Positions 26,137 through 38,486 are shown, numbered from the stretch's first letter. The stretch is 49,383 nt of DNA from Eubacteriales Family XIII. Incertae Sedis bacterium (GCA_031266025.1 JAISBV010000145.1:1-49383), one strand, 5' to 3'. The notes: generated by a model from the letters alone, not told the origin. Numbers and translations: made by a program.

Positions 26137-27088
26137 TCACGACAGTTTTCTTATCATTTCTCGGCTATACCATGTCGGCACAGGTTCGTCGGATTGGTAC
26201 GCCGACTCGAATAATGTATAGAGCTTATCGTAGTTGACTTCGCGGCAGAGTATCATTTGCAATTCTGCAGTTGCAAGCGGCAGAATCTTCAAACCCTCAA
26301 CAGCCGTCTCGTAGTTCTCACCGTAGTATGGGTACGTCTTGCGGTGGCGGAAGTCACTGATTACGTTGCGATGCAGGAATGTAGAAACAAACACGCAATA
26401 AGCGTTCCTATCGCCGCTCGACAAGATATATTCGCCGAGGTGACGGCTTACGGGTTCCATCTCCATTCTCCGCTGATTTGAATTGTCCGCAAGCGTTGCT
26501 TCAATCAAAAGCGTATGTGCCGGATATGCGGCGGTCTGCGGATAGACGTACTCAATATCGGCATTACCGCCTTGCGCGTGGGTTCGCGGAAGTAAATCTG
26601 CCTCAAGGGAAAGGTTCATATACGAAAGCACATCGCCCTTGCGGTCGCTTATCAGATACCACGCAATGCCAAGAACATACTCAAAAATAGTCGGCACGTC
26701 GGCATTATTTGTGACGGTTTGACGGATAGCATTATCTTCGCGCCGTTCAAATTTGCCAAACAAATCTATCAGCGCATTACGGTCAAATTGCGCTCACCGT
26801 CAATCAACCCTATATCCACAAGTCCGCTCGTTTTCTCACGGGCATCTTTCGCCGGATTCGGCGCGTTTCCTTTGACAAAGCCGCGTTCCTGTATAAAGTG
26901 ATAATAATCTTCCTGCGCAAGTGCCCATGCGCCACCGTTGACTTTGCGGAACTCAGAAAGGAGAGATAGCTGATGCTCAATCCGCACATTAAAATCCATC
27001 GTGCGGAAACTGGTCGTGCCGAGCGACCAACAGAAACTCTTGTAAGGAAAATTCGCCACTTTGGTTGCCCATCCTTAATAGTTGACAA
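26137..27088 (-). pseudogene. Decayed AlwI-family type II restriction endonuclease
   Basis: Two frames together show the family's ends. The N-terminal part (27059-26769) has YKSFCWSLGTTSFRT, and the C-terminal part (26763-26137) has NADIEYVYP, LLIEATLADN and RRMEMEPVSRHLG, the probable nuclease core. They join out of frame near 26775-26785, where one missing base would give LTRNALIDLFGKF. Another shift is likely near 27050: MSTIKDGQPKW in one frame continues as FPYKSF in another. At about 300 residues in total it is much shorter than full AlwI-type enzymes (about 550 as I recall), so an internal deletion is likely. Known: AlwI-type enzymes are type IIS nucleases. Inferred: inactive. Confidence 0.65.
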
Positions 27089-27364: not shown

Positions 27365-28261
27365 TCATACGTGCGGACGCAGCCAAGAGTCATAAAGCTC
27401 CTTCCTGAGAGCGGCCGCGTCGCGGACGACGGGCAGGTTGACGGAGCGCGCCGAGGGGTCGCGCCCCGTGCCGAGGTAGCCTCTTTCAAGATCGGCCCGC
27501 GTCGCGTCGCACGCGTGCGCGCGATCCGCGAACAGGGCCTTTTCGAGCATATACACGGCCGCCGTCGCATCCCAATTGTAGAATCCGTTCAGGCCGTACA
27601 ATTCGTTCTTCTTGCCGAACCAACTCTCCGTTTTGCGGTAAATATACCCGCCGAGGGGATTGTCCGCATTCATCAAACGGTCTCTGTACTCGCCGTGATC
27701 CATATATGAGTCGAGACAATTATTGCCCGTCATTATCGAAATATTCGCGCCCGCGGTCAGAACGCGATACGACGCCTCGGGGTCTAGTGATAAATTGAGC
27801 TCGTCCATCCCCACTCCGTTCAGAAAGAGCGCTTCTGTGACGCCGCCCATCAGCACGAGCTCTTTTATATTGTCGAAGAAAGAACGGTCGATTTCGTGGG
27901 CGGCATAAAGATTCGTGAGCGAGCCCGTGGCCAATACGCTGAGCTCGCCCTTGTGCGCGTTCGCCCGATCCGCCAAAAATTCCGCCGCTTCGGAGTCGCG
28001 GCGATTCCCGCGCGCCGCGCCCTTCAGAACCGGAATATCGCTTCTGCCGAGCTCTTTCAGCATCGCTTTCGTATTCCCGTAAACCTCGTCCACGCGGCCG
28101 TTGCCGTAGGTCGTCGTAAGACCGACGAGACGAGCACGGGGCTTGCCGAGCAAGTACAGCAGCGCAAGGCCGTCGTCCGCCGGGCGTCCCGGCATACCGA
28201 ACGTGTTGTCGCAGTCAAAAATCACATGAATCCGCTCGGATTCCGCCGCCGGCTCAGCCAT
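27365..28261 (-). CDS. Nucleoside hydrolase (IUNH family)
   Basis: 298 residues from the ATG at 28261, which overlaps the upstream gene by 8 bp; a longer start at 28282 lacks a ribosome-binding site. Seen: an aspartate-rich metal site FDCDNTFGMPGRPADDG, a variant of the usual DTDPGIDD with extra residues between the first and last aspartates; LATGSLTNLY, which carries the conserved Asn; and NWDATAAVYM near the C-terminus in place of the usual HD motif. Known: the family splits the N-glycosidic bond of ribonucleosides using calcium. Last gene of the ArsS operon. Inferred: it could remove adenine from a deoxyadenosyl product of the radical SAM enzymes. Confidence 0.8.
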   Translation of the reverse strand: MAEPAAESERIHVIFDCDNTFGMPGRPADDGLALLYLLGKPRARLVGLTTTYGNGRVDEVYGNTKAMLKELGRSDIPVLKGAARGNRRDSEAAEFLADRANAHKGELSVLATGSLTNLYAAHEIDRSFFDNIKELVLMGGVTEALFLNGVGMDELNLSLDPEASYRVLTAGANISIMTGNNCLDSYMDHGEYRDRLMNADNPLGGYIYRKTESWFGKKNELYGLNGFYNWDATAAVYMLEKALFADRAHACDATRADLERGYLGTGRDPSARSVNLPVVRDAAALRKELYDSWLRPHV

Positions 28262-29297
28262 GTTCTTCGATATAGCGTTCATCCAGGATTATCTTATCCT
28301 CATTGCCCCTGCGTATGTACTTAAATCCGCAGTCAAACAGCATCTTTCGACACGCGGCCATGTCCATACCCCTGTTATCGGAGGTGTCTGCGACGTGATC
28401 CCTCGGATTGGCGCCCGTTTCGGCGGTTACGACGTTCGCGCCCGATACGTAACCGATCTCCGTGGGCTCGTGTACGCCCATATACGTCATGCTCGGCATC
28501 GTAAATGTCGCGAGCGCGACGACGGCCACGATCTGCCCCAAACGGAGATTGGAAATCTGCCCGTATTTCGCGAGCGGCGTCCCGGGAACCGGCGCCCTGC
28601 GCATGGCGGCGTGCTGCGTACAGCCTTGGTCTATGCCTATAAACATATTGTCCACAAGTTGGTCGATACTGTGTTCGGGGCCGATCGGCTCAAGACAGCT
28701 GAATATTTGAAGGCCCGCGTCCAAGGCGTTTTGCATGGTCTTCATGCGGGTTTCGGGATTCAGCGCCGTCACGTCGCCTTCCCCAATGCGGCATACGTGA
28801 TATACCCCCGTAATGCCCGCCTTCTTCATCTCCTTGAACATGTCCGCGTCGGTGTCGCCCACGTTCGACAGAAGCTGCGTCGAGCCCTTGATAAGCTTCT
28901 TCGCAACGCGCGCCTTTTCGAGTAAGAATTCCGGATCGTATTCGTGCATGGACATAAGATATATGCCATACAGGTCGTCGTCCTTGCAGAATTCCGTAAG
29001 TTTGGTTACGAACTCCTCATCGTCGATCCGCTTTTTTTGAAAAGCGGTGTGGTCGCGGCCAAAGGAACAGAAACCGCAATTGCCGGGACAGGGCGCTGTT
29101 TCAAGGCCGATCTGGCCGAGAATGATGCCTGAATTGTCATTCCCGCTCCGAACGATATGCGACGCGACCGAACGCATCATATACGCCTCCGCGGAATTTT
29201 CGTCGAACGAAAGCAGGTATGCGCAGTCCTCACGCCCCGGCGACCGGTCGGCGTAGGCCCTGTCCAGTATGGCGGCCGCCCGACTGTCGAGTTTCAT
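28254..29297 (-). CDS. BioB/HydE-like radical SAM protein
   Basis: 347 residues. Seen: cluster motif Cys70-Pro-Gly-Asn-Cys74-Gly-Phe-Cys77 followed by SFG, and a TIM-barrel of biotin-synthase type (GITGVYHVCRIGEGD, FSCLEPIGPEHS, RRAPVPGTPLA). No second Cys set clear enough for an auxiliary cluster. Start: ATG at 29297 lies 8 nt after GGAGG; the upstream ATG at 29312 overlaps that site. It follows the ArsS-like gene by 28 bp and is coupled to the nucleoside hydrolase. Exact reaction unknown; sulfur insertion, methylation of a thiol site or a carbon-skeleton change are all possible in this branch. Confidence 0.8.
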   Translation of the reverse strand: MKLDSRAAAILDRAYADRSPGREDCAYLLSFDENSAEAYMMRSVASHIVRSGNDNSGIILGQIGLETAPCPGNCGFCSFGRDHTAFQKKRIDDEEFVTKLTEFCKDDDLYGIYLMSMHEYDPEFLLEKARVAKKLIKGSTQLLSNVGDTDADMFKEMKKAGITGVYHVCRIGEGDVTALNPETRMKTMQNALDAGLQIFSCLEPIGPEHSIDQLVDNMFIGIDQGCTQHAAMRRAPVPGTPLAKYGQISNLRLGQIVAVVALATFTMPSMTYMGVHEPTEIGYVSGANVVTAETGANPRDHVADTSDNRGMDMAACRKMLFDCGFKYIRRGNEDKIILDERYIEEHG

Positions 29298-29325
29298 CAC
29301 ATCAACCTCCATTCCCGCCTGAGCC

Positions 29326-30303
29326 TTAAGCCGTCGTTCCGCCGCAGCTCGAACCCGCGCCCGCCGTGCACGCGTAGCAGTGATTGCCGAAGACGATTTC
29401 GCGTTCCGTCAATTCGGCGTCGCCCAAATCCCGGATGTTATGCGGAATATTCGCGGCAAGACCCAGAGCCAGATTGAAATCGCAGTCGTAAATCGCGCCG
29501 TCAAAGTCCACGGAAATCTGATTGCGGCACATCATGTTTTCGACGGCCGCCGGATTGAAGGCCGCCGTCAGACGGGTCATATAGCCCGTCATATTACCGC
29601 TTCTTTCGAGGAATTTGCCGAAGCGCCCTATGGGATTGTTCGTGAGCGCATACAGGTTGTTGAATGAAAGACCGTATAATTCCGAGAGCTTTTTCCTGTA
29701 TTCCGTCGTCAGCGCCTCCTGATTCGGTGGAAGAAACGCGCCGCCGGGATTGTACACGAGATTCAGCGTCGGGCCCGCGGCCTTGCCGTAGCCCAAGGCG
29801 TTCAATTCGCGCAGCACCGATACGCAGGCCGCGAAAACGCCCGTTCCGCGCTGCCTGTCGGTGTCCTTTTCCGTATAATACGGCAAAGACGCCACCAATT
29901 CCACGCCGCTTTGCGCGTAAAACTCCGGCAAATCCCTGTAGCCTTCCTCGTTCAATATGACCAAATTCGTACGTACGAGGGTGTGAAATCCCCTTTCGGC
30001 CGCGTTCTCCGCAAACCAACGAAAATGCGGATTCATCTCGGGCGCGCCGCCGGTTATGTCCAATGTCTTGAAGCGGCGCCGCTCAAAGACGTCAAGGCAG
30101 GCCGCCATAACGTCCTTGCCCATCGTCTCGACGCGGTCGGGCCGCGCCTCGACGTGGCAGTGCTTGCAGGCCAGATTGCAGCGACGGCCAATGTTTGCCT
30201 GCATGATCTCAAGGCTCGGTAACGTCATGCGAAATCCGCGGCATTCCTCCCGTTCGCCGAACGGAGGAATCGCCGCCTGCCCCGCCGAATGATTATTCTC
30301 CAT
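29326..30303 (-). CDS. arsS: ArsS-like radical SAM protein (arsenosugar biosynthesis type)
   Basis: 325 residues. Seen: radical SAM motif Cys42-Asn-Leu-Ala-Cys46-Lys-His-Cys49, DITGGAPEMNPHF soon after, then a Cys-rich C-terminal half with MMCRNQISVDFDG, YDCDFN and HCYACTAGAGSSCGG, matching the ArsS/DUF3641 family. Known: in cyanobacteria ArsS adds the 5'-deoxyadenosyl group of SAM to dimethylarsenite, the step that begins arsenosugar synthesis. It follows the AhpD-like gene by 9 bp. An ArsM methyltransferase, which would supply methylated arsenic, is not in this window. A different substrate in this organism cannot be excluded. Confidence 0.8.
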   Translation of the reverse strand: MENNHSAGQAAIPPFGEREECRGFRMTLPSLEIMQANIGRRCNLACKHCHVEARPDRVETMGKDVMAACLDVFERRRFKTLDITGGAPEMNPHFRWFAENAAERGFHTLVRTNLVILNEEGYRDLPEFYAQSGVELVASLPYYTEKDTDRQRGTGVFAACVSVLRELNALGYGKAAGPTLNLVYNPGGAFLPPNQEALTTEYRKKLSELYGLSFNNLYALTNNPIGRFGKFLERSGNMTGYMTRLTAAFNPAAVENMMCRNQISVDFDGAIYDCDFNLALGLAANIPHNIRDLGDAELTEREIVFGNHCYACTAGAGSSCGGTTA

Positions 30304-30312
30304 GCCCCGGCC

Positions 30313-30645
30313 TTAAAGTTCCAACTTACTTATGACGTTCTTCGCTTGCATACCGTGGGCCAGGGTGGCGCCGCCGCGAATAGCGGCCGCCGCGTGAACG
30401 GCCTCTATCATCTGTTCACGGTTCACGCCCATCTCAAGCAGCGCCTGCGTGTACGAGTCTATGCAGTACGGACACTGAACGGCGTGGGCGACCGCAAAGG
30501 CAATCAACGCTTTCTCCCTTGCGCTCAAAGCGCCGTCCTCGAATACCTTGCCGTAATAGGCCATGAATTTTTCCCACAGATCGGGGGCGTCCTCCCCCAT
30601 ATTGCCGAATTGCGCCAAATCATCGGGATTGTAATAGGTCTTCAT
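30313..30645 (-). CDS. AhpD-like (carboxymuconolactone decarboxylase family) protein, ArsS-associated type
   Basis: 110 residues. Seen: the helical AhpD fold with redox pair Cys58-Pro-Tyr-Cys61 followed by IDSY, and AHGMQAKNV at the end. Start: ATG at 30645 follows GAGGAG at good spacing; a longer frame reaching 30840 would run through the promoter. Known: small proteins of this kind often accompany ArsS and are annotated as peroxidase-like. First gene of the operon behind a palindromic operator. Inferred: thiol-disulfide chemistry or reduction of arsenic or peroxide species. Confidence 0.8.
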   Translation of the reverse strand: MKTYYNPDDLAQFGNMGEDAPDLWEKFMAYYGKVFEDGALSAREKALIAFAVAHAVQCPYCIDSYTQALLEMGVNREQMIEAVHAAAAIRGGATLAHGMQAKNVISKLEL

Positions 30646-30733
30646 ATACTCCTCCTCGCTTCTCGCACACACTGTCTCGCGTGCCGCCGTATGGATCGCG
30701 TCGCCTCGCGCGGGCCCTCGCCCATCCGAGACT

Positions 30734-30774
30734 TTACATATAATGTAACACATATATTGAAATGTTTCAATATA
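30734..30774 (-). promoter_or_regulatory. Palindromic operator/promoter of the ArsS operon
   Basis: TATATTGAAA-TG-TTTCAATATA (30753-30774) is a perfect 10-2-10 palindrome, and TTACAT-ATA-ATGTAA (30734-30748) is a second perfect one beside it. On the minus strand TTGAAA within the operator and TACATT 17 nt later make a plausible -35/-10. AT-rich dyads of this form are typical of ArsR/SmtB repressors, but no such gene is in the window. Confidence 0.55.
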
Positions 30775-31125: not shown

Positions 31126-31156
31126 ATTAACAATAAGGTATCCCCGCTTATTTATG

Positions 31157-31213
31157 AAAGGAGGACGCGCGGAAATTCCCGGGCGCTGTACGCCCGCCGC
31201 GCAAAAGATCATG
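31157..31213 (+). promoter_or_regulatory. Shine-Dalgarno sequence separated from ATG by a GC-rich hairpin
   Basis: AAAGGAGGA (31157-31165) is 45 nt from the ATG at 31211. Between them GCGCGG (31167-31172) pairs with CCGCGC (31197-31202) and CGGGCG (31180-31185) with CGCCCG (31191-31196), loop CTGTA, 7-nt bulge on one side. With the hairpin folded, the site and the ATG are about 10 nt apart. An ATG at 31154 in the same frame lies in front of the site and would spoil the signal peptide. Confidence 0.55.
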
Positions 31214-32269
31214 AGAAAAATACTTATTGCTATCGCGGTCGCCGCATCTGTTACAGCAGTGTCCGCCGCCGTCTTTGCCGCCGCGTTTCCGGATCTGCCC
31301 GCGAGTCACTGGGCTTACGACGCCGTTATGTCCATGGCCGAAGAGAACATTGTGAACGGTTATCCGACCGGCGATTTCAAGCCGTCGGATACCGTAACCT
31401 ACGGCGAGTTTATCAAGATGGCGCACATCGCCCGCGGCGGCGAAGAGCTTGTTTCGGACGGTGCTGCCGGCAGCGATTGGGCGCTGCCGTATCATGAAGC
31501 CGCCGTTCGGGACGGGCTGTACAGCGAACACGATATAACAAGACACGTACTTTCGCTGCCGATTCCGAGGGAGTATATGGCGCTCGTACTCTCGCGCGTT
31601 CTCGGGAACGCGGAAATAGCCGATTACGAAAAGGTGCAAGAGAAGCTTTCTGACATTACGGCGGACACGCCGCGCGAATACGACATTACGAAGGTCACGG
31701 CATACGGGCTTATCACAGGTTATCCCGACAGGACGTTCAAGCCCGCGGAGACGCTGACGAGAGCGGAGGCCGCCACCGTGATTTACAGGCTTATCAATCC
31801 GAATGAGAGACAATTGCCGGATCTTCGGCCCGCTGAGGAAAAGACGCCGCTCGAAAGACTTTCGGATGTGCCCGAATGGAATTTGAATCCTCTTCTGGTC
31901 GTTGTGCAAGCGTCGGCTTCCAAAAGACCAATCTCCGAAGTGATAGACGACGCGGTGTTCAATTCAATAGATGAACCCGTGCTTTATTACGAGATTTTCG
32001 ACGACTATCCGTACCAAATGAAAAAGGTTCTGAATTTTGTGGGAAGAGAAGTGATTGCCGTCGGGCAACAGGGCATGAAGGGTTTTTTAATCAGAAACCG
32101 CAAGGTAATAGCCAATATTGAGAGCGGGCGAACCGAAGACGGTACGGATACCGTATATGTATCGTACGGCGAAGGATACGGCTCTCAAACATATCCCGAA
32201 TTCGACTATATAGCCATAAAACCGGCAAATAAAGACGTTTTGCTTTTGATTCCGAACAATATGCGATAG
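31211..32269 (+). CDS. Secreted protein with three SLH domains
   Basis: 352 residues. Seen: signal peptide MRKILIAIAVAASV ending near VFAAAF; SLH-like repeats near 24-75 (FPDLPASHWAYDAV, NGYPTGDFKPSD), 85-135 (degenerate) and 150-205 (TGYPDRTFKPAETLTRAEA); then a C-terminal domain of about 150 residues I do not recognise, rich in acidic residues and ending with LLLIPNNMR. Known: three SLH units bind the pyruvylated wall polymer. It lies 64 bp before the giant secreted protein with no terminator between, probably in one operon. Inferred: wall anchor or scaffold for that protein. Start choice is explained under the hairpin entry. Confidence 0.8.
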   Translation: MRKILIAIAVAASVTAVSAAVFAAAFPDLPASHWAYDAVMSMAEENIVNGYPTGDFKPSDTVTYGEFIKMAHIARGGEELVSDGAAGSDWALPYHEAAVRDGLYSEHDITRHVLSLPIPREYMALVLSRVLGNAEIADYEKVQEKLSDITADTPREYDITKVTAYGLITGYPDRTFKPAETLTRAEAATVIYRLINPNERQLPDLRPAEEKTPLERLSDVPEWNLNPLLVVVQASASKRPISEVIDDAVFNSIDEPVLYYEIFDDYPYQMKKVLNFVGREVIAVGQQGMKGFLIRNRKVIANIESGRTEDGTDTVYVSYGEGYGSQTYPEFDYIAIKPANKDVLLLIPNNMR

Positions 32270-32283
32270 TTTACAGGTTTGCG

Positions 32284-32336
32284 AAAGGAGGATGACGCGG
32301 GCGCGCCGGAAGGCGCTTGCCGCGCGCAGTACAATG
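32284..32336 (+). promoter_or_regulatory. Second Shine-Dalgarno / hairpin / ATG arrangement
   Basis: AAAGGAGGA (32284-32292) touches an ATG at 32292 that is too close to be used. The next in-frame ATG, at 32334, is 41 nt away and starts a proper signal peptide. Between them GCGCC (32303-32307), a GGAA tetraloop and GGCGC (32312-32316) form a tight stem, with GCGG (32297-32300) and CCGC (32320-32323) outside. The layout repeats that at 31157-31213. Confidence 0.5.
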
Positions 32337-35300
32337 AGCATATCGTCAAACAAGGGCCGAATAATTTCGGCAATAATTATCCTGTCGCTTCTGTTCGCGC
32401 TTCCGATCAAAACGATGCCGGCCGCGGCGGCGACAAAGGAGATAAACACAACATATTACAGGCTTGACACGGGCGTTACCTTCCTCTGGAAAAACAGCGC
32501 GGGGGTCTGGCAGAAAGGTTGGGAGCCCGGCGGCGCGCAAGTCTACAGCGTGGCGTTCAGCATACCGAAGAACGCGAAAAACGTCAGGGTGGACAGGTAC
32601 AACAAAAGCAATTTTGTCTTCGGATCAGGCGGACAATATGCCGACGGCGAAGGCGATGGGCGCAAGGTCTATAATTGGAATCCGACAGCCTACGCATATA
32701 ATCAAAACAGTTATGACGATGCATACAATGACCACAGCGCAAGCCCGCTGTCCGTTTCGGGCGCGGACAGCTACAACCCCGCGAACGGCAGGCTGACCGT
32801 GACCTATACGGCGACATTTTCAAAGAGCAGGGGAATAGACGTCAAAGAAGCGCTTACGAATGAAAAAAAGGACTATATTTACGGACTGCTCGGCTCGCCG
32901 TCTCAAGAGCTTATCGACGCTATGAACCTGCTCGATCCGCACAGCCAAAGCTTCAGCCAAAACGTCGAGGGCTATCTGTGGTTTCTGCCTATTGTCATAC
33001 GCTACGATCTGACGGAGCAGACAGAGATTCCCGACGACGCGTTTGACGCCGCGCTCTCGCTTCCCGTGACCGCTATGGTCGGTGAAAGCTACACGGCCGC
33101 CGACGTTTCTGTCTTGGGCGGCGATGTATCCGTCAAAAACGCGGAGCTCAACAAGCATTACGGCGACGGTAAATGGGAACCGGTCGCGACGTGGCCCGGC
33201 AGAGGCGCCGGGCAAAACAGCGGCGGCAAGAAGAACGAAACCGCAAATTCGGACGGTGAGATCACATACCGGCTAATCGTAACGGCCTCTGACGGCAGAA
33301 GCGATACGGACACAAAAAAGATAAAGATATTGGCTGAAGGCGAAGAAGCGCCGAAGCCGGAGGAAAGCGAAAAGTCCGACGTCGGCATGACGGCGATACT
33401 CAATCTGCCTTCCTCCGTCTACGAAGGACATTCCGCGCGCGCCTCGGACATCAGTTCCTACGCTGTCGACGGCAAGGATTATTCTGCGGCGCGCATGTAT
33501 TCCGAAGGCAGGGCAAGGAATGAATTCAGGACGAGCTCCGAAGCCGGCGCATCGCAAACGGCGATAACGGCCACCGAAAGGGATATATCTTGGCCGAGAA
33601 TCGGCGAATACGACGTCACGCTCCGAATCAGCGCGAACGGCGATTCCGACACGGATACAAAACCGATAGAGGTGCTTTATACCCCCGCCGTCACAGGCAA
33701 TCTCAGCGGCGCGCAGAAGCAAAACAGAAAACAGACGCTCTCCGCTAATATAGCGACGAATCCGCAGTATCCCATCAGAACAGCGTGGATGGAGATCACG
33801 GAAAAGGCGAGCGGCGAAAGCGTAAAGCTTTATATGGACGGTAGTCTCCGGAACAGCGACAATATAAAGACACGCGCTATAAAAGACACGGATTCGGACG
33901 AGTTTTTCACGAACATTGAGCTTTCGTTTCTGACAAAATACGGCGAAACGAGAGAATTCAGCTACACTATATTCGCGGAAGACTCGCGCGGTCGTACGGA
34001 TACGATCACGAAGGACTTCACTGTTACTCCCGACCTGCCTCCCGTGCCCGAGATATTCCTTCCGACCGAGTTCCTGCGTGAAAAGGGCGGCAACGTCGCG
34101 AAGATAGAAGTGACCGACAAATCGAAGACGGACGGCGGCGACCAACTTGAGCGCACATGGTATGTATCGTATCCGGGCCCCGGCGGAACCGCCGGTTTCA
34201 CAGACGCGGCCGACGTCGCGGGCTATGAAGACATGTCGTTCGGCAGCGGGCAGAGCATAATTTTCGAGAAAACGGGCGTCGGCCCCGCGAGCGTCAAACT
34301 GCACGTCAAAGATGTGTGGACAGACGAAACGCTGCCCGAATACATAAGCGACGGCGAGTATCTGTCGGCGGAGTCGGAGATTTCAAGCACAGTCGTGCAA
34401 AACATAGCGCCCGTCGTTACTCTTTCGGCAAAACCGACGAAATCGGCGGATCTGCTGCTGATCGCCGCGTCGGACGCGGAGTACGACGCGCTTGTCTCAA
34501 GGAAGAACGAGATAGACCGCGCGCTTACAGAAAAGGGCGTCGACGCGACGCTGAACGTAAAAAAATTAGTCGGGCCTGCCGGTTACGGTTTTTATCCGCT
34601 TATGAACGCCGTGTACCCGCTCGGAGCGCATACGGTCTTGTCCGGTAAATATTTCTCACTTGACGACGACTTCCTGTACACCGTAAACGGCACATGGGAT
34701 GCGGCGAAAAGCAGACTTTCGGCGCCGTACTGTCTCACGGCGTACGACGCGCGCACAGGCGCGGCAGAATGGACGTACACGCTGAATGAAAGCGCCGACG
34801 GCTTATTCAAGACCGGCGAATTTGAAAACTCGTTTGTCGGCTACGGGCATGACGCAGACGGCAAATACTTATTCCTGCGCTTCAAAAGCAAAACGCTCAT
34901 ATTCGACAAGCGGACGGGCGCGTATCTGACAAAAACAGATCAGGTCTTCGGCGAGTACAATTACACGACGGCAAACGCGATATACACGCTGAGGAACGAC
35001 GGCGTTTACAAACTCAAACTCTCGGGCGGCACGGCGATAAGGGTATTTTCGGGCGGCGCTGCGGGAGAGTCGCGGCTCGTAGGCGGCAAGGCGAGGTTTT
35101 TCACGCAGACGGCGCCGAACGCGTACATCGCCGACTTCGATCCCGTTACAGAAAAAACGACGCTCATCAAACTCCCGGGCATAACAGCGAATGCGGCCAA
35201 TTTGGCCGCCGGCATCGATTCGGCGGGGAATATCCTTGTAAACTCCGCGACCGGCGCCAATTTCTTCGACAAGGCCGGGCGTTCCGTCAAGACGTTGCCG

Positions 35301-38300
35301 GGTGGCGTGTATCCGATCAGAAACGGCGCGGGCGAGATCACTTACGCCGCTTGCGGAAGTTGGCGTAACGGAAGCAGCGACAGCTACACCATGGCGTTGT
35401 ACGATCTTTATTCCGACAGGGTGTTCAGCCACACGCAGTCGGCCGGCGAACTCTCGTATATGCCGATAATCGCGGGCTTCGACGAAGGGCAGAATACAGT
35501 TTCCGTGCAGAGAGGACTTTTTGCAAACGACCTCGGTTCCGGCTACGGACTTTCCGAAGGAGCTTTCGGCAATTCGGCGCGGGCGGGCTCTTATGTAATA
35601 AACACCTCGACGGGCGACGTGAGATTCACATCCCGATCCGATTACCTCGCTTACGGCGACGGAAGGGCGGAGTACGCAAAGACGAGCGATGCGCTCTATG
35701 CGGTCGGTTGGGATTACAGCGGCTACGGCAATCCGCCGCCCGCGGACGACGCGAAGGTCAGAACGGCCGAGATTCCGAGGACGGAGGATCAGGTGCTTGC
35801 GCAGACGATCATGAGCCTTGCAACGGTCGACGCGAAGGATATCAGGGCAGCGATACTTCTTGACGATTCGGGAAACGTGTTCGGCGCGGACGGCGCAGGA
35901 GTCGGCTCGGCGCTCGGAAACGCAAGACTTATCAAGCTGTCGGGTTCCGGCTCCGCTTTGCTTGCGAACACTGTAGCCGAGCGCATAACGGCGCAGGGGA
36001 CCACAGAGCAAAAAACGGCCGTCTTAAAGAAATCCGCAGATGCCGAGACGGGACGCATAAGCAGAAGCTTTACGCTCGATCCTCAAAAAATTTACTATTA
36101 TGAGTATGAAACTTACGGCGGGAACGCGAAAGACGCTCAACCTTTGTCGGTCGCATTCGAATACGCGAAAACGGCGGCCGACGACAGAATTTTGCCCGGG
36201 AGACTCTATGTGCAAAAAACGTATTTTGAAGACTTTAACGGAGGCCCGCTGACAGGATTCTTCAGCGGATTTTCGAGCGACCGCGTATCGGACGGGGTAT
36301 ACAAAGCGTCTTACGGAACCGGCGCGGAAGCATTCACGTTCACTGTACCTGCGGGGATGCGAGGCATACTGTCGTTCGATTACGGCGCGGCGCAAAACAA
36401 ATCCGGGCATTTCGTTGTAGACAGCGATATATGGGACGTCGTCTCCGTCAACGGTCATTACACGCACAAATATCCGCTTGAGCCCGGCGCGCATACGCTT
36501 GAAAGCAGGCTCTATCACGCGCCTACAAACGATTCGAAAACATTCCGAAATATGCACATGAAGCTCGACAATCTGAAATTGGAACTCGTCAGCGCGTCCG
36601 AGCCCAATACAGAAGCGTGGGGAGGCAAGGCGGAAGACGCGGGAAACGGCCGGATGAAATATTCGGGCAGCTTCAACACGCCGAATTCCGTATTTTCCTA
36701 CGCGGCGCAACCACTTGAAGTTCGGGAAGGCCCTTACCAAAACAATCCTTATGTAACGGCCAACATCACTGACGGATATATGGGCGCGTCTACGCTTACG
36801 GTTAACATACCTTACGGCAGATACGCTCTCGATTCCGCCGTCGGTCTGTCCGCGTACGCCCGGCCGGGAGAAGGGTACTACAGTACGGCGGGGGCGTCGA
36901 TCTCATTCACGGTCGGTTACAGCGGCGCGGATCCGACGCGCGTGATCTACGGCATGCTGCCGATAGCAAACGGTTCCACAGGGCCCGTAAACGTAATGGG
37001 CTCGTGGGCCCACGCCAACGGCAACGGCAGACATATGTCCTATACAAACGTAAATCTCTACCTCGCCGACGAAATGAACGAATCTATAGCGCGCGGCGAT
37101 TTCACGCTCGACAGGGCGGCGGGCAGGGTATACTTTGTCAATGAAACTGTTTCCGGAGCAAAACTCACATTTTCTTCGGCGGCGGAAACCTTGAAGATAA
37201 AGAATTTCAACCTGTATTATCTCGAAAACGGCATAAAGACATACTTGACACGAGACAGTCTTGAATCAGCTTCCGAAGCGGCCGCTTGGACGAGCGAGAA
37301 CGCGGAGCTCGTCGTAGTGGATGAAAGGCCTGTGGGCGAAGAGAAGGAAAACGGCGCGCTGATATATAAGAAGGGGCAACTTGTGGCGTACAATATCGGT
37401 TACACGGATTATGAAAACGATCCGAGCAAGGCTGAGTTTTGGCGCTACACGCACACGCCATTCAACGACGGAGAGCATCCCGACGCGGCCGTTATCATGG
37501 ACAGAAACGGTGAAATCGTGACGGTTTCGAACAATGTACTGTCCGAAAGCATAGACCGTTTCTATACAGACGGAAAATACGTCGTCGAACATTGGCAGAC
37601 GGACAACACGGACAGGATGAACACGGGCGACGACGACGTAAATTATGAAGATTTTAACAGGTATTCGAACACGGAAACATTGACGTTTTATATAGAAGGC
37701 GGCGGCGAAGCGCCGTGGGTCACGGGGATAAGGACGAATCCCGACCCTGTGACGGAGGGCGGCGGCTACAGACTTGAAATCGGCGTTGACGATATTGAAA
37801 AGGACGATCTCACCGTACTTGTTGAGGTCTACTTCGAGGGTAAGGAAGTTTACAGATACAGAGAAGAAGGCGTAAAGGCAAACGGTCTCGGCGTTTACCC
37901 GTCGATTGTCACGGGACTCGCGCCCGGCGCCGCGCAGGGCGATTATACGGTCGTCGCGACGATTTGGGATGAGGACGGAACAGGACTCGGCAGCCACGTC
38001 TTCAGCGTGGAGTTTTTGGGCAGGATAACAGGCGCGGTTCGGCATACCGAGCAATGGGAAAAAAACCGAAGGATATATAACACCAAGCTGTTCGGCGACG
38101 CGTACGACGTACTTTCCGTCTTCGGCGAGTACAAGACCGAATCTCCGCCGAGAAAGCGCGGAACAAATGTATTCTGGTCGGGTGAACGTTTCATGCTTGA
38201 AGCTGCGGTCGGCGGCGAACCCGAGAGCGTCGCATGCCAAATCGAGTCTTATCCGGCATATGCCGCAAGCTTGACCGGAACGGGCAGAAAGAACGCGGAC

Positions 38301-38486
38301 GGCGACGAGATATACGAAGGACATATTTGGAGCGGCGACACAGTAAACAAATGGGGCCGAAGCGCGCCTGTCTCGCTCAAATTTGTCTTCACGGCTGTAT
38401 ATGCCGGCGACGTCACGAAAATATATGAAGAGACCGTGATTGCGGACACATACGAAGATTATCGGCAATTGCACAGAAATTTTTGA
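32334..38486 (+). CDS. Giant secreted protein (about 2050 residues) with Ig-like and propeller-like regions
   Basis: Seen: signal peptide MSISSNKGRIISAIIILSLL ending near AAAA. Residues about 30-230 form a unique domain. Then come Ig/PKD-like repeats whose last strands read SDTDTKKIKIL, SDTDTKPIEVL and TDTITKDFTV. About residues 750-1200 show a repeated pattern like a PQQ-type beta-propeller (LTAYDARTGAAEWTYT, TLIFDKRTGAYLTKTDQ). The C-terminal third has more beta-sandwich stretches. No SLH, LPXTG, dockerin or membrane segment is seen, so it is released or held by partners such as the SLH protein before it. I do not recognise a named family with confidence. Fairly even codon use suggests an intact gene. 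Confidence 0.8.
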   Translation: MSISSNKGRIISAIIILSLLFALPIKTMPAAAATKEINTTYYRLDTGVTFLWKNSAGVWQKGWEPGGAQVYSVAFSIPKNAKNVRVDRYNKSNFVFGSGGQYADGEGDGRKVYNWNPTAYAYNQNSYDDAYNDHSASPLSVSGADSYNPANGRLTVTYTATFSKSRGIDVKEALTNEKKDYIYGLLGSPSQELIDAMNLLDPHSQSFSQNVEGYLWFLPIVIRYDLTEQTEIPDDAFDAALSLPVTAMVGESYTAADVSVLGGDVSVKNAELNKHYGDGKWEPVATWPGRGAGQNSGGKKNETANSDGEITYRLIVTASDGRSDTDTKKIKILAEGEEAPKPEESEKSDVGMTAILNLPSSVYEGHSARASDISSYAVDGKDYSAARMYSEGRARNEFRTSSEAGASQTAITATERDISWPRIGEYDVTLRISANGDSDTDTKPIEVLYTPAVTGNLSGAQKQNRKQTLSANIATNPQYPIRTAWMEITEKASGESVKLYMDGSLRNSDNIKTRAIKDTDSDEFFTNIELSFLTKYGETREFSYTIFAEDSRGRTDTITKDFTVTPDLPPVPEIFLPTEFLREKGGNVAKIEVTDKSKTDGGDQLERTWYVSYPGPGGTAGFTDAADVAGYEDMSFGSGQSIIFEKTGVGPASVKLHVKDVWTDETLPEYISDGEYLSAESEISSTVVQNIAPVVTLSAKPTKSADLLLIAASDAEYDALVSRKNEIDRALTEKGVDATLNVKKLVGPAGYGFYPLMNAVYPLGAHTVLSGKYFSLDDDFLYTVNGTWDAAKSRLSAPYCLTAYDARTGAAEWTYTLNESADGLFKTGEFENSFVGYGHDADGKYLFLRFKSKTLIFDKRTGAYLTKTDQVFGEYNYTTANAIYTLRNDGVYKLKLSGGTAIRVFSGGAAGESRLVGGKARFFTQTAPNAYIADFDPVTEKTTLIKLPGITANAANLAAGIDSAGNILVNSATGANFFDKAGRSVKTLPGGVYPIRNGAGEITYAACGSWRNGSSDSYTMALYDLYSDRVFSHTQSAGELSYMPIIAGFDEGQNTVSVQRGLFANDLGSGYGLSEGAFGNSARAGSYVINTSTGDVRFTSRSDYLAYGDGRAEYAKTSDALYAVGWDYSGYGNPPPADDAKVRTAEIPRTEDQVLAQTIMSLATVDAKDIRAAILLDDSGNVFGADGAGVGSALGNARLIKLSGSGSALLANTVAERITAQGTTEQKTAVLKKSADAETGRISRSFTLDPQKIYYYEYETYGGNAKDAQPLSVAFEYAKTAADDRILPGRLYVQKTYFEDFNGGPLTGFFSGFSSDRVSDGVYKASYGTGAEAFTFTVPAGMRGILSFDYGAAQNKSGHFVVDSDIWDVVSVNGHYTHKYPLEPGAHTLESRLYHAPTNDSKTFRNMHMKLDNLKLELVSASEPNTEAWGGKAEDAGNGRMKYSGSFNTPNSVFSYAAQPLEVREGPYQNNPYVTANITDGYMGASTLTVNIPYGRYALDSAVGLSAYARPGEGYYSTAGASISFTVGYSGADPTRVIYGMLPIANGSTGPVNVMGSWAHANGNGRHMSYTNVNLYLADEMNESIARGDFTLDRAAGRVYFVNETVSGAKLTFSSAAETLKIKNFNLYYLENGIKTYLTRDSLESASEAAAWTSENAELVVVDERPVGEEKENGALIYKKGQLVAYNIGYTDYENDPSKAEFWRYTHTPFNDGEHPDAAVIMDRNGEIVTVSNNVLSESIDRFYTDGKYVVEHWQTDNTDRMNTGDDDVNYEDFNRYSNTETLTFYIEGGGEAPWVTGIRTNPDPVTEGGGYRLEIGVDDIEKDDLTVLVEVYFEGKEVYRYREEGVKANGLGVYPSIVTGLAPGAAQGDYTVVATIWDEDGTGLGSHVFSVEFLGRITGAVRHTEQWEKNRRIYNTKLFGDAYDVLSVFGEYKTESPPRKRGTNVFWSGERFMLEAAVGGEPESVACQIESYPAYAASLTGTGRKNADGDEIYEGHIWSGDTVNKWGRSAPVSLKFVFTAVYAGDVTKIYEETVIADTYEDYRQLHRNF

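What the first reader, a model, noticed from the sequence alone, without database searches (positions are those of the whole stretch)
27365..30774. Four-gene ArsS operon with a second radical SAM enzyme and a nucleoside hydrolase
Seen: AhpD-like, ArsS-like, BioB-like radical SAM and IUNH-family genes are packed with gaps of 9 bp, 28 bp and an 8-bp overlap. Known: ArsS builds a 5'-deoxyadenosyl organoarsenical, and adenine must be removed to make arsenosugars. Inferred: the nucleoside hydrolase performs that removal and the BioB-like enzyme adds a further radical step, giving an organoarsenic pathway in an anaerobic Gram-positive. The IUNH metal motif is an unusual variant (DCDNTFGMPGRPADD), which may suit a modified nucleoside. 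ArsM is not nearby, so the substrate may be different.
Basis: partly seen in the sequence, partly recalled or inferred. Interest (0 to 1): 0.75.

Follow-up and report, generated by a model that had tools for sequence, protein, structure and literature searches.

The report
Arsenic-controlled operon with two radical enzymes
A bacterial operon pairs the known arsenosugar enzyme ArsS with an unnamed second radical enzyme and a nucleoside-cutting enzyme, and relatives elsewhere suggest that this second radical enzyme is a recurrent, previously unnamed part of gene clusters that build organic arsenic compounds.

Summary
The four genes are real and tightly packed. ArsS (TIGR04167, 420 bits, cut-off 300) and the AhpD-like protein (TIGR04169) pass curated arsenosugar models. 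The true operon is 27365-30645; just upstream lies a perfect inverted repeat (30753-30774) that matches the promoter-operator in front of an As(III)-type arsR in three orthologous cassettes: Sporobacter termitidis and two MAGs. There the order is arsR-ahpD-arsS-rSAM2 (4/4 with the window, arsR apart), with a C_GCAxxG_C_C gene in two and the hydrolase in two including the window. ArsS and rSAM2 trees agree, so the cassette travels as a unit. rSAM2 is neither BioB nor PylB (far below cut-offs; only the three SAM-cluster cysteines invariant). Its wider family sits beside 'arsenosugar' glycosyltransferase-type genes in 10 ArsS-less genomes, where it takes the place of ArsS. The IUNH subfamily also sits in such loci, beside an APH-type kinase that occurs in an ArsS locus. 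No ArsM was found in this genome (82% complete), but many ArsS genomes lack it. Most likely: organoarsenic nucleoside/sugar formation, ArsS adenosylating arsenic, hydrolase removing adenine, rSAM2 doing a second radical step. The arsenic link is well supported; the two added steps are inference.

The parts
30753..30774 (-). Probable ArsR-type operator: perfect inverted repeat TATATTGAAA-ca-TTTCAATATA overlapping the -35 box
   Evidence: core 30755-30772 exact; 0.25 matches expected at up to 3 mismatches in the whole window; aligned with sequence upstream of arsR in L002, L003, L004
30742..30770 (-). Promoter-like site TTGAAA-17-TACATT with TG before the second hexamer
   Evidence: consensus match only, but in register with the orthologous promoters
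30313..30645 (-). AhpD-like arsenosugar-associated peroxidase-like protein, 110 aa, CxxC
   Evidence: TIGR04169 182.7 bits over cut-off 120; 88-93% identical in orthologous cassettes
29326..30303 (-). ArsS, radical SAM arsenosugar enzyme with C-terminal DUF3641, Cys version, 325 aa
   Evidence: TIGR04167 420 bits over cut-off 300; PF12345 175.7 bits; tree
28254..29297 (-). rSAM2: unnamed radical SAM family, distantly BioB/PylB-like, CxxxCxxC
   Evidence: PF04055 31.9 bits; TIGR00433 25.2 vs 225; TIGR03910 30.3 vs 348; family alignment A3; tree
27365..28261 (-). IUNH-family nucleoside hydrolase of the DCDN[TS]-insert subfamily
   Evidence: PF01156 133.9 bits over cut-off 34.2; subfamily neighbourhoods; tree

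Best explanation
The operon is an arsenic-responsive organoarsenic (arsenosugar-type) biosynthesis cassette that moves as a unit between anaerobic bacteria. Shown: gene content, order, a shared promoter-operator, ArsR in the orthologues, co-inheritance of ArsS and rSAM2, and recurrence of rSAM2 and the IUNH subfamily in loci with arsenosugar-type glycosyltransferases. Inferred: As(III) releases an ArsR repressor. ArsS places a 5'-deoxyadenosyl group on a (methylated) trivalent arsenical. The hydrolase cuts adenine off, leaving the arseno-5-deoxyribose. rSAM2 performs a second radical step on the same arsenical, most likely a further radical alkylation or C-As bond formation. The AhpD-like (and elsewhere C_GCAxxG_C_C) proteins keep the arsenical in the reduced, thiol-bound state. 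Without ArsM in the genome, the methylated precursor would come from the surroundings, or rSAM2 supplies the extra carbon ligand.
For: ArsS and AhpD-like pass curated arsenosugar models. arsR-ahpD-arsS-rSAM2 in Sporobacter and two MAGs, with ArsR carrying a QCACVLL-type motif as in As(III)-sensing ArsR (own knowledge). Promoter-operator conserved in all four loci. Cassette ArsS clade 100/98 and rSAM2 clade 100/96. A second, separate ArsS linkage: G725 has ArsM-ArsS fusion, ArsS, AhpD and four rSAM2 paralogues within about 24 kb. Ten ArsS-less genomes have rSAM2 beside TIGR04282-like GT1, several also with GT2, TVP38 or C_GCAxxG_C_C (NCBIfam names for L070). IUNH beside GT1/GT2/kinase/TVP38 in L118, and the same kinase in an ArsS locus, L151. 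rSAM2 and IUNH co-occur by genome more than expected (4 vs 0.8, p 0.006; 3 vs 0.7, p 0.03 without the window).
Against: ArsS and rSAM2 do not co-occur across genomes more than chance (p 0.45 without the window). Other rSAM2 clades sit beside sulfonate/NMT1-type importers, PadR or MtaA-type methyltransferases with no arsenic gene, so the family is not arsenic-specific. G917, a close rSAM2 relative, has neither ArsS nor the hydrolase. The hydrolase is missing from L003. Most IUNH-subfamily members lie beside a YnjB-type importer, which suggests nucleoside salvage. The name 'arsenosugar glycosyltransferase' rests on neighbourhood. No ArsM found.
Confidence: 0.5

Rival explanations
1. Only ArsS and the AhpD-like protein handle arsenic; the hydrolase cleans up 5'-deoxyadenosine, the by-product of radical SAM enzymes, and rSAM2 makes an unrelated or accessory modification.
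For: rSAM2 would release 5'-deoxyadenosine if it is a typical radical SAM enzyme (general knowledge). The IUNH subfamily often lies with a YnjB-type importer and an APH-fold kinase, as in a salvage route. G725 has a 5'-deoxyadenosine/MTA deaminase-like amidohydrolase near its rSAM2 copies.
Against: ArsS itself should not need such clean-up if the adenosyl group stays on arsenic. rSAM2 is kept with ArsS in 4/4 cassettes, under an As-type regulator in three, and is better conserved (70-84%) than ArsS (68-72%).
Confidence: 0.22
2. The cassette breaks down organoarsenicals: rSAM2 cleaves a C-As bond or removes methyl groups without oxygen, and the hydrolase opens imported arseno-nucleosides.
For: rSAM2 relatives lie next to ABC importers (SsuA/NMT1 type and YnjB type) or MtaA/CmuA-family methyltransferases. 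ArsM is missing in the window genome and in Sporobacter. The known C-As lyase ArsI needs oxygen (own knowledge).
Against: ArsS is known to make, not break, the C-As bond (Cheng et al. 2021, cited in PMC12159101). The window cassette has no importer. Glycosyltransferase-type genes in sister loci point to synthesis.
Confidence: 0.15
3. rSAM2 replaces ArsS in function: it is an independent C-As bond-forming radical SAM family, and the window keeps both enzymes for two successive ligands. (A sharper form of the best explanation; the confidences overlap.)
For: Ten genomes without ArsS keep the glycosyltransferase-type set with rSAM2 in the place of ArsS; L070 CGC-GT2-GT1-rSAM2-TVP38 mirrors L107 CGC-GT2-GT1-AhpD-ArsS-TVP38.
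Against: The window clade and the ArsS-less clade are separate branches. No chemistry known. Those genomes were not tested for ArsM.
Confidence: 0.25

Closest known systems
Arsenosugar pathway ArsM-ArsS of Synechocystis (ArsS, TIGR04167)
   Same: ArsS-family protein with radical SAM and DUF3641 domains; AhpD-like partner TIGR04169
   Different: No ArsM found in the genome, operon has a second radical SAM enzyme and a nucleoside hydrolase, As-type operator in front
arsQML arsinothricin operon (ArsL radical SAM)
   Same: Arsenic-induced operon in which a radical SAM enzyme other than ArsS forms a C-As bond (PMC8552651)
   Different: ArsL transfers an aminocarboxypropyl group; no ArsM or ArsQ in the window operon; ArsL was not compared by sequence here
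BioB / PylB branch of radical SAM enzymes
   Same: CxxxCxxC and a weak, nearly full-length profile match
   Different: Far below both curated cut-offs; no further invariant cysteine to hold a BioB-type [2Fe-2S] cluster
IUNH nucleoside hydrolases (RihA/RihC, UriH)
   Same: PF01156 domain over cut-off; core motifs kept (LTNL, DPEA, WD)
   Different: Insert between the two halves of the metal motif; 49-63 bits vs equivalog cut-offs of 382-459

Membership tests
ArsS (TIGR04167) | Score over the curated cut-off | tested here: met
   420 bits vs 300
ArsS (TIGR04167) | C-terminal DUF3641 domain | tested here: met
   PF12345 175.7 bits vs 24.9, residues 191-323
ArsS (TIGR04167) | Groups with other ArsS proteins by tree | tested here: met
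   25-row ArsS tree, cassette clade 100/98; no functionally tested ArsS was in the tree
ArsS (TIGR04167) | Adenosylation of DMA(III) | not testable with these tools
   Needs enzyme assay
ArsM-ArsS arsenosugar pathway | ArsM in the same genome | tested here: not met
   No ArsM in G000 (82% complete) or Sporobacter; G355 control rings
TIGR04169 AhpD-like | Score over the curated cut-off | tested here: met
   182.7 vs 120
BioB (TIGR00433) | Score over cut-off | tested here: not met
   25.2 vs 225
BioB (TIGR00433) | Extra conserved cysteines for the [2Fe-2S] cluster | tested here: not met
   Only C75, C79, C82 invariant in 28 relatives
PylB (TIGR03910) | Score over cut-off | tested here: not met
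   30.3 vs 348.2
IUNH (PF01156) | Pfam domain over cut-off | tested here: met
   133.9 vs 34.2
IUNH (PF01156) | Nucleoside hydrolysis and substrate choice | not testable with these tools
   AlphaFold model from 2 sequences was weak, pLDDT 60
ArsR-regulated ars operon | ArsR gene with the operon | tested here: not met
   Absent in the window operon; present in L002, L003, L004
ArsR-regulated ars operon | ArsR-type operator at the promoter | tested here: inconclusive
   Conserved palindrome shared with arsR-led orthologues; binding not shown

The most novel reading that the evidence does not exclude
rSAM2 is a new family of radical SAM enzymes that forms C-As bonds: it stands in for ArsS in many anaerobes and, in this cassette, works with ArsS to build an arsenical with two radical-made carbon ligands without ArsM, with a dedicated hydrolase removing adenine.
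Probability: 0.25. Interest if true: 0.82.

Novelty: new variant of a known kind. Interest (0 to 1): 0.58.

Why it matters
How the adenine is removed and the sugar elaborated after ArsS is, as far as I know, enzymatically unassigned. This operon and its relatives name testable candidates for the later steps (hydrolase, APH-type kinase, TIGR04282/TIGR04283 transferases) and point to an unnamed radical SAM family that may make or alter C-As bonds in anaerobes.

Tried and rejected
Biotin or methylornithine synthase for rSAM2: rejected by cut-offs and missing cysteines. Thiamine-type salvage, suggested by NMT1-like importers and a weak thiamine-kinase match: no TPP riboswitch in 18 sources; only cobalamin, Moco, rRNA and L10-leader hits. 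The unusual IUNH motif as a sign of a modified substrate: rejected as a subfamily trait. Fold comparison: models from 4 and 2 sequences were too weak (pLDDT 48 and 60), so not searched. Plasmid spread: only one distant plasmid hit. A shuffle test of the inverted repeat in my own script crashed; the pattern-search expectation is given instead. Papers: no report found of this operon or of the rSAM2 family in the open-access library; subscription papers were not searchable.

Full report
OBSERVATION. The four genes exist on the - strand as described. Gaps are 9 bp, 28 bp and an 8-bp overlap when the starts supported by orthologues are used (30645, 30303, 29297, 28261). The AhpD-like gene does not begin at 30774; that position is the edge of an inverted repeat at the promoter.

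IDENTITY OF THE GENES. ArsS scores 420 bits against the curated arsenosugar model TIGR04167 (cut-off 300) and has the DUF3641 domain. The AhpD-like protein passes TIGR04169 (182.7 vs 120). The third gene, here called rSAM2, has only the general radical SAM domain in Pfam and lies far below BioB (25 vs 225) and PylB (30 vs 348). The fourth is an IUNH-family hydrolase far below the cut-offs of the named hydrolases.

ORTHOLOGOUS CASSETTES. A scan of 84,980 species genomes with rSAM2 found three close loci: Sporobacter termitidis (L002), a Family XIII MAG (L003) and a Deltaproteobacteria MAG (L004, short contig, binning not verified). The orders are arsR-ahpD-arsS-rSAM2-CGC-IUNH in L002, arsR-ahpD-arsS-rSAM2 in L003, and arsR-ahpD-arsS-rSAM2-CGC (contig ends) in L004 (CGC = PF09719 C_GCAxxG_C_C). 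The peptide patterns of that scan were strict, so the number of close relatives is a lower bound. ArsS and rSAM2 of the four cassettes each form a supported clade (100/98 and 100/96), so they travel together. rSAM2 is the better conserved of the two (70-84% vs 68-72%).

REGULATION. The window operon lacks an adjacent arsR, but its promoter region carries TATATTGAAA-ca-TTTCAATATA (30753-30774). The same element lies at the same place before arsR in the three orthologues, overlapping a TTGAAA -35-like hexamer. The core is found once in the window, with 0.25 expected at up to three mismatches. The ArsR proteins carry QCAC[VI]LL, like As(III)-sensing ArsR (own knowledge). A distant arsR in this genome was not sought.

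WIDER rSAM2 FAMILY. In 398 genomes sampled from the phylum, 22 have rSAM2 relatives (E<=1e-30), 15 the IUNH subfamily and 12 true ArsS. Ten of the rSAM2 genomes, all without ArsS, keep a TIGR04282-like transferase (GT1) beside rSAM2, several also with GT2, TVP38, C_GCAxxG_C_C, Fe-S, MBL or DUF169 genes (L069-L077, L081). NCBIfam names TIGR04282 and TIGR04283 'arsenosugar biosynthesis glycosyltransferase'; this was checked directly for L070 and L118, elsewhere by homology to those. L070 (CGC-GT2-GT1-rSAM2-TVP38) mirrors the ArsS locus L107 (CGC-GT2-GT1-AhpD-ArsS-TVP38). G725 joins the two types: an ArsM-ArsS fusion, another ArsS with AhpD, and four rSAM2 paralogues in one region. Other rSAM2 clades sit with PadR regulators and SsuA/NMT1-type importers or with MtaA-type methyltransferases, so the family as a whole is not arsenic-specific. 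In the 28-row alignment only the three cluster cysteines are invariant among cysteines, with motifs EPxGxEH and GAN..AE.G.NPRD.

HYDROLASE. Members of the IUNH subfamily share the DCDN[TS]-insert. They lie beside a YnjB-type importer in many genomes (PRK11622, 535 bits for L095) and an APH-type kinase. L118 has IUNH, GT2, kinase, GT1, Fe-S and TVP38 together. The same kinase is in the ArsS locus L151. This suggests the order ArsS -> hydrolase -> sugar kinase -> CofC-like transferase -> glycosyltransferase, but only as inference from neighbourhood. rSAM2 and IUNH co-occur by genome (p 0.006; 0.03 without the window), ArsS and rSAM2 do not. These tests ignore relatedness.

ArsM. No match in the window genome with a protein query or with NF008823, nor in Sporobacter, while the G355 control rings. 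About half of the ArsS genomes tested also lack it, so the substrate may be imported DMA/MMA. Absence from an 82% complete MAG is weak.

MECHANISM. Shown: content, order, co-inheritance, shared operator, recurrent loci. Established elsewhere: a radical SAM enzyme (ArsS) adenosylates arsenic in arsenosugar biosynthesis, and another (ArsL) forms a C-As bond in arsinothricin biosynthesis (PMC12159101, PMC8552651). Inferred: adenine removal by the hydrolase (about 0.5) and a second radical step on the arsenical by rSAM2 (about 0.35).

VERDICT. The finding holds and is richer than stated: an arsR-type operator, orthologous cassettes, and an unnamed radical SAM family recurring in arsenosugar-type loci. 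The chemistry of the two added enzymes is untested.

Noticed in passing
window 26137-27059, - strand: Broken remnant of an AlwI-type restriction endonuclease (PF09491, profile positions 283-439 only) directly downstream of the operon.
   Followed up: no
L095 3668-3794 (G607): Moco/tungsten riboswitch (RF01055) upstream of a YnjB-type importer-kinase-IUNH run that is followed by a moaA-like gene; unexplained link between this IUNH subfamily and molybdenum cofactor.
   Followed up: partly
L042, L115 (G355, G725): ArsM and ArsS fused into one protein of about 680 aa.
   Followed up: partly
L064 (G725): Four rSAM2 paralogues around an ArsS-AhpD pair, with a CobW-like GTPase, importers and a 5'-deoxyadenosine/MTA deaminase-like amidohydrolase nearby.
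   Followed up: partly
L065 5263-5700, L066 623-1012, L079 5616-6038, L129 7183-7593: PadR-like regulators with an N-terminal cysteine motif (CPCxG or CxCxG) next to rSAM2; possible metal or metalloid sensors.
   Followed up: no
L152 (OY725850.1, Subdoligranulum variabile plasmid) 119-2569: rSAM2 relative on a plasmid directly after an MtaA-like methyltransferase gene, a pair also seen in L128 (there with a GTPase gene between).
   Followed up: partly
window 31154-38486, + strand: Large surface-type proteins (371 aa with S-layer-like repeats, and 2064 aa) upstream of the operon on the other strand.
   Followed up: no
L146 (Sporobacter, G952): A second IUNH of the same subfamily beside a YnjB-type importer, apart from the arsenic cassette.
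   Followed up: partly
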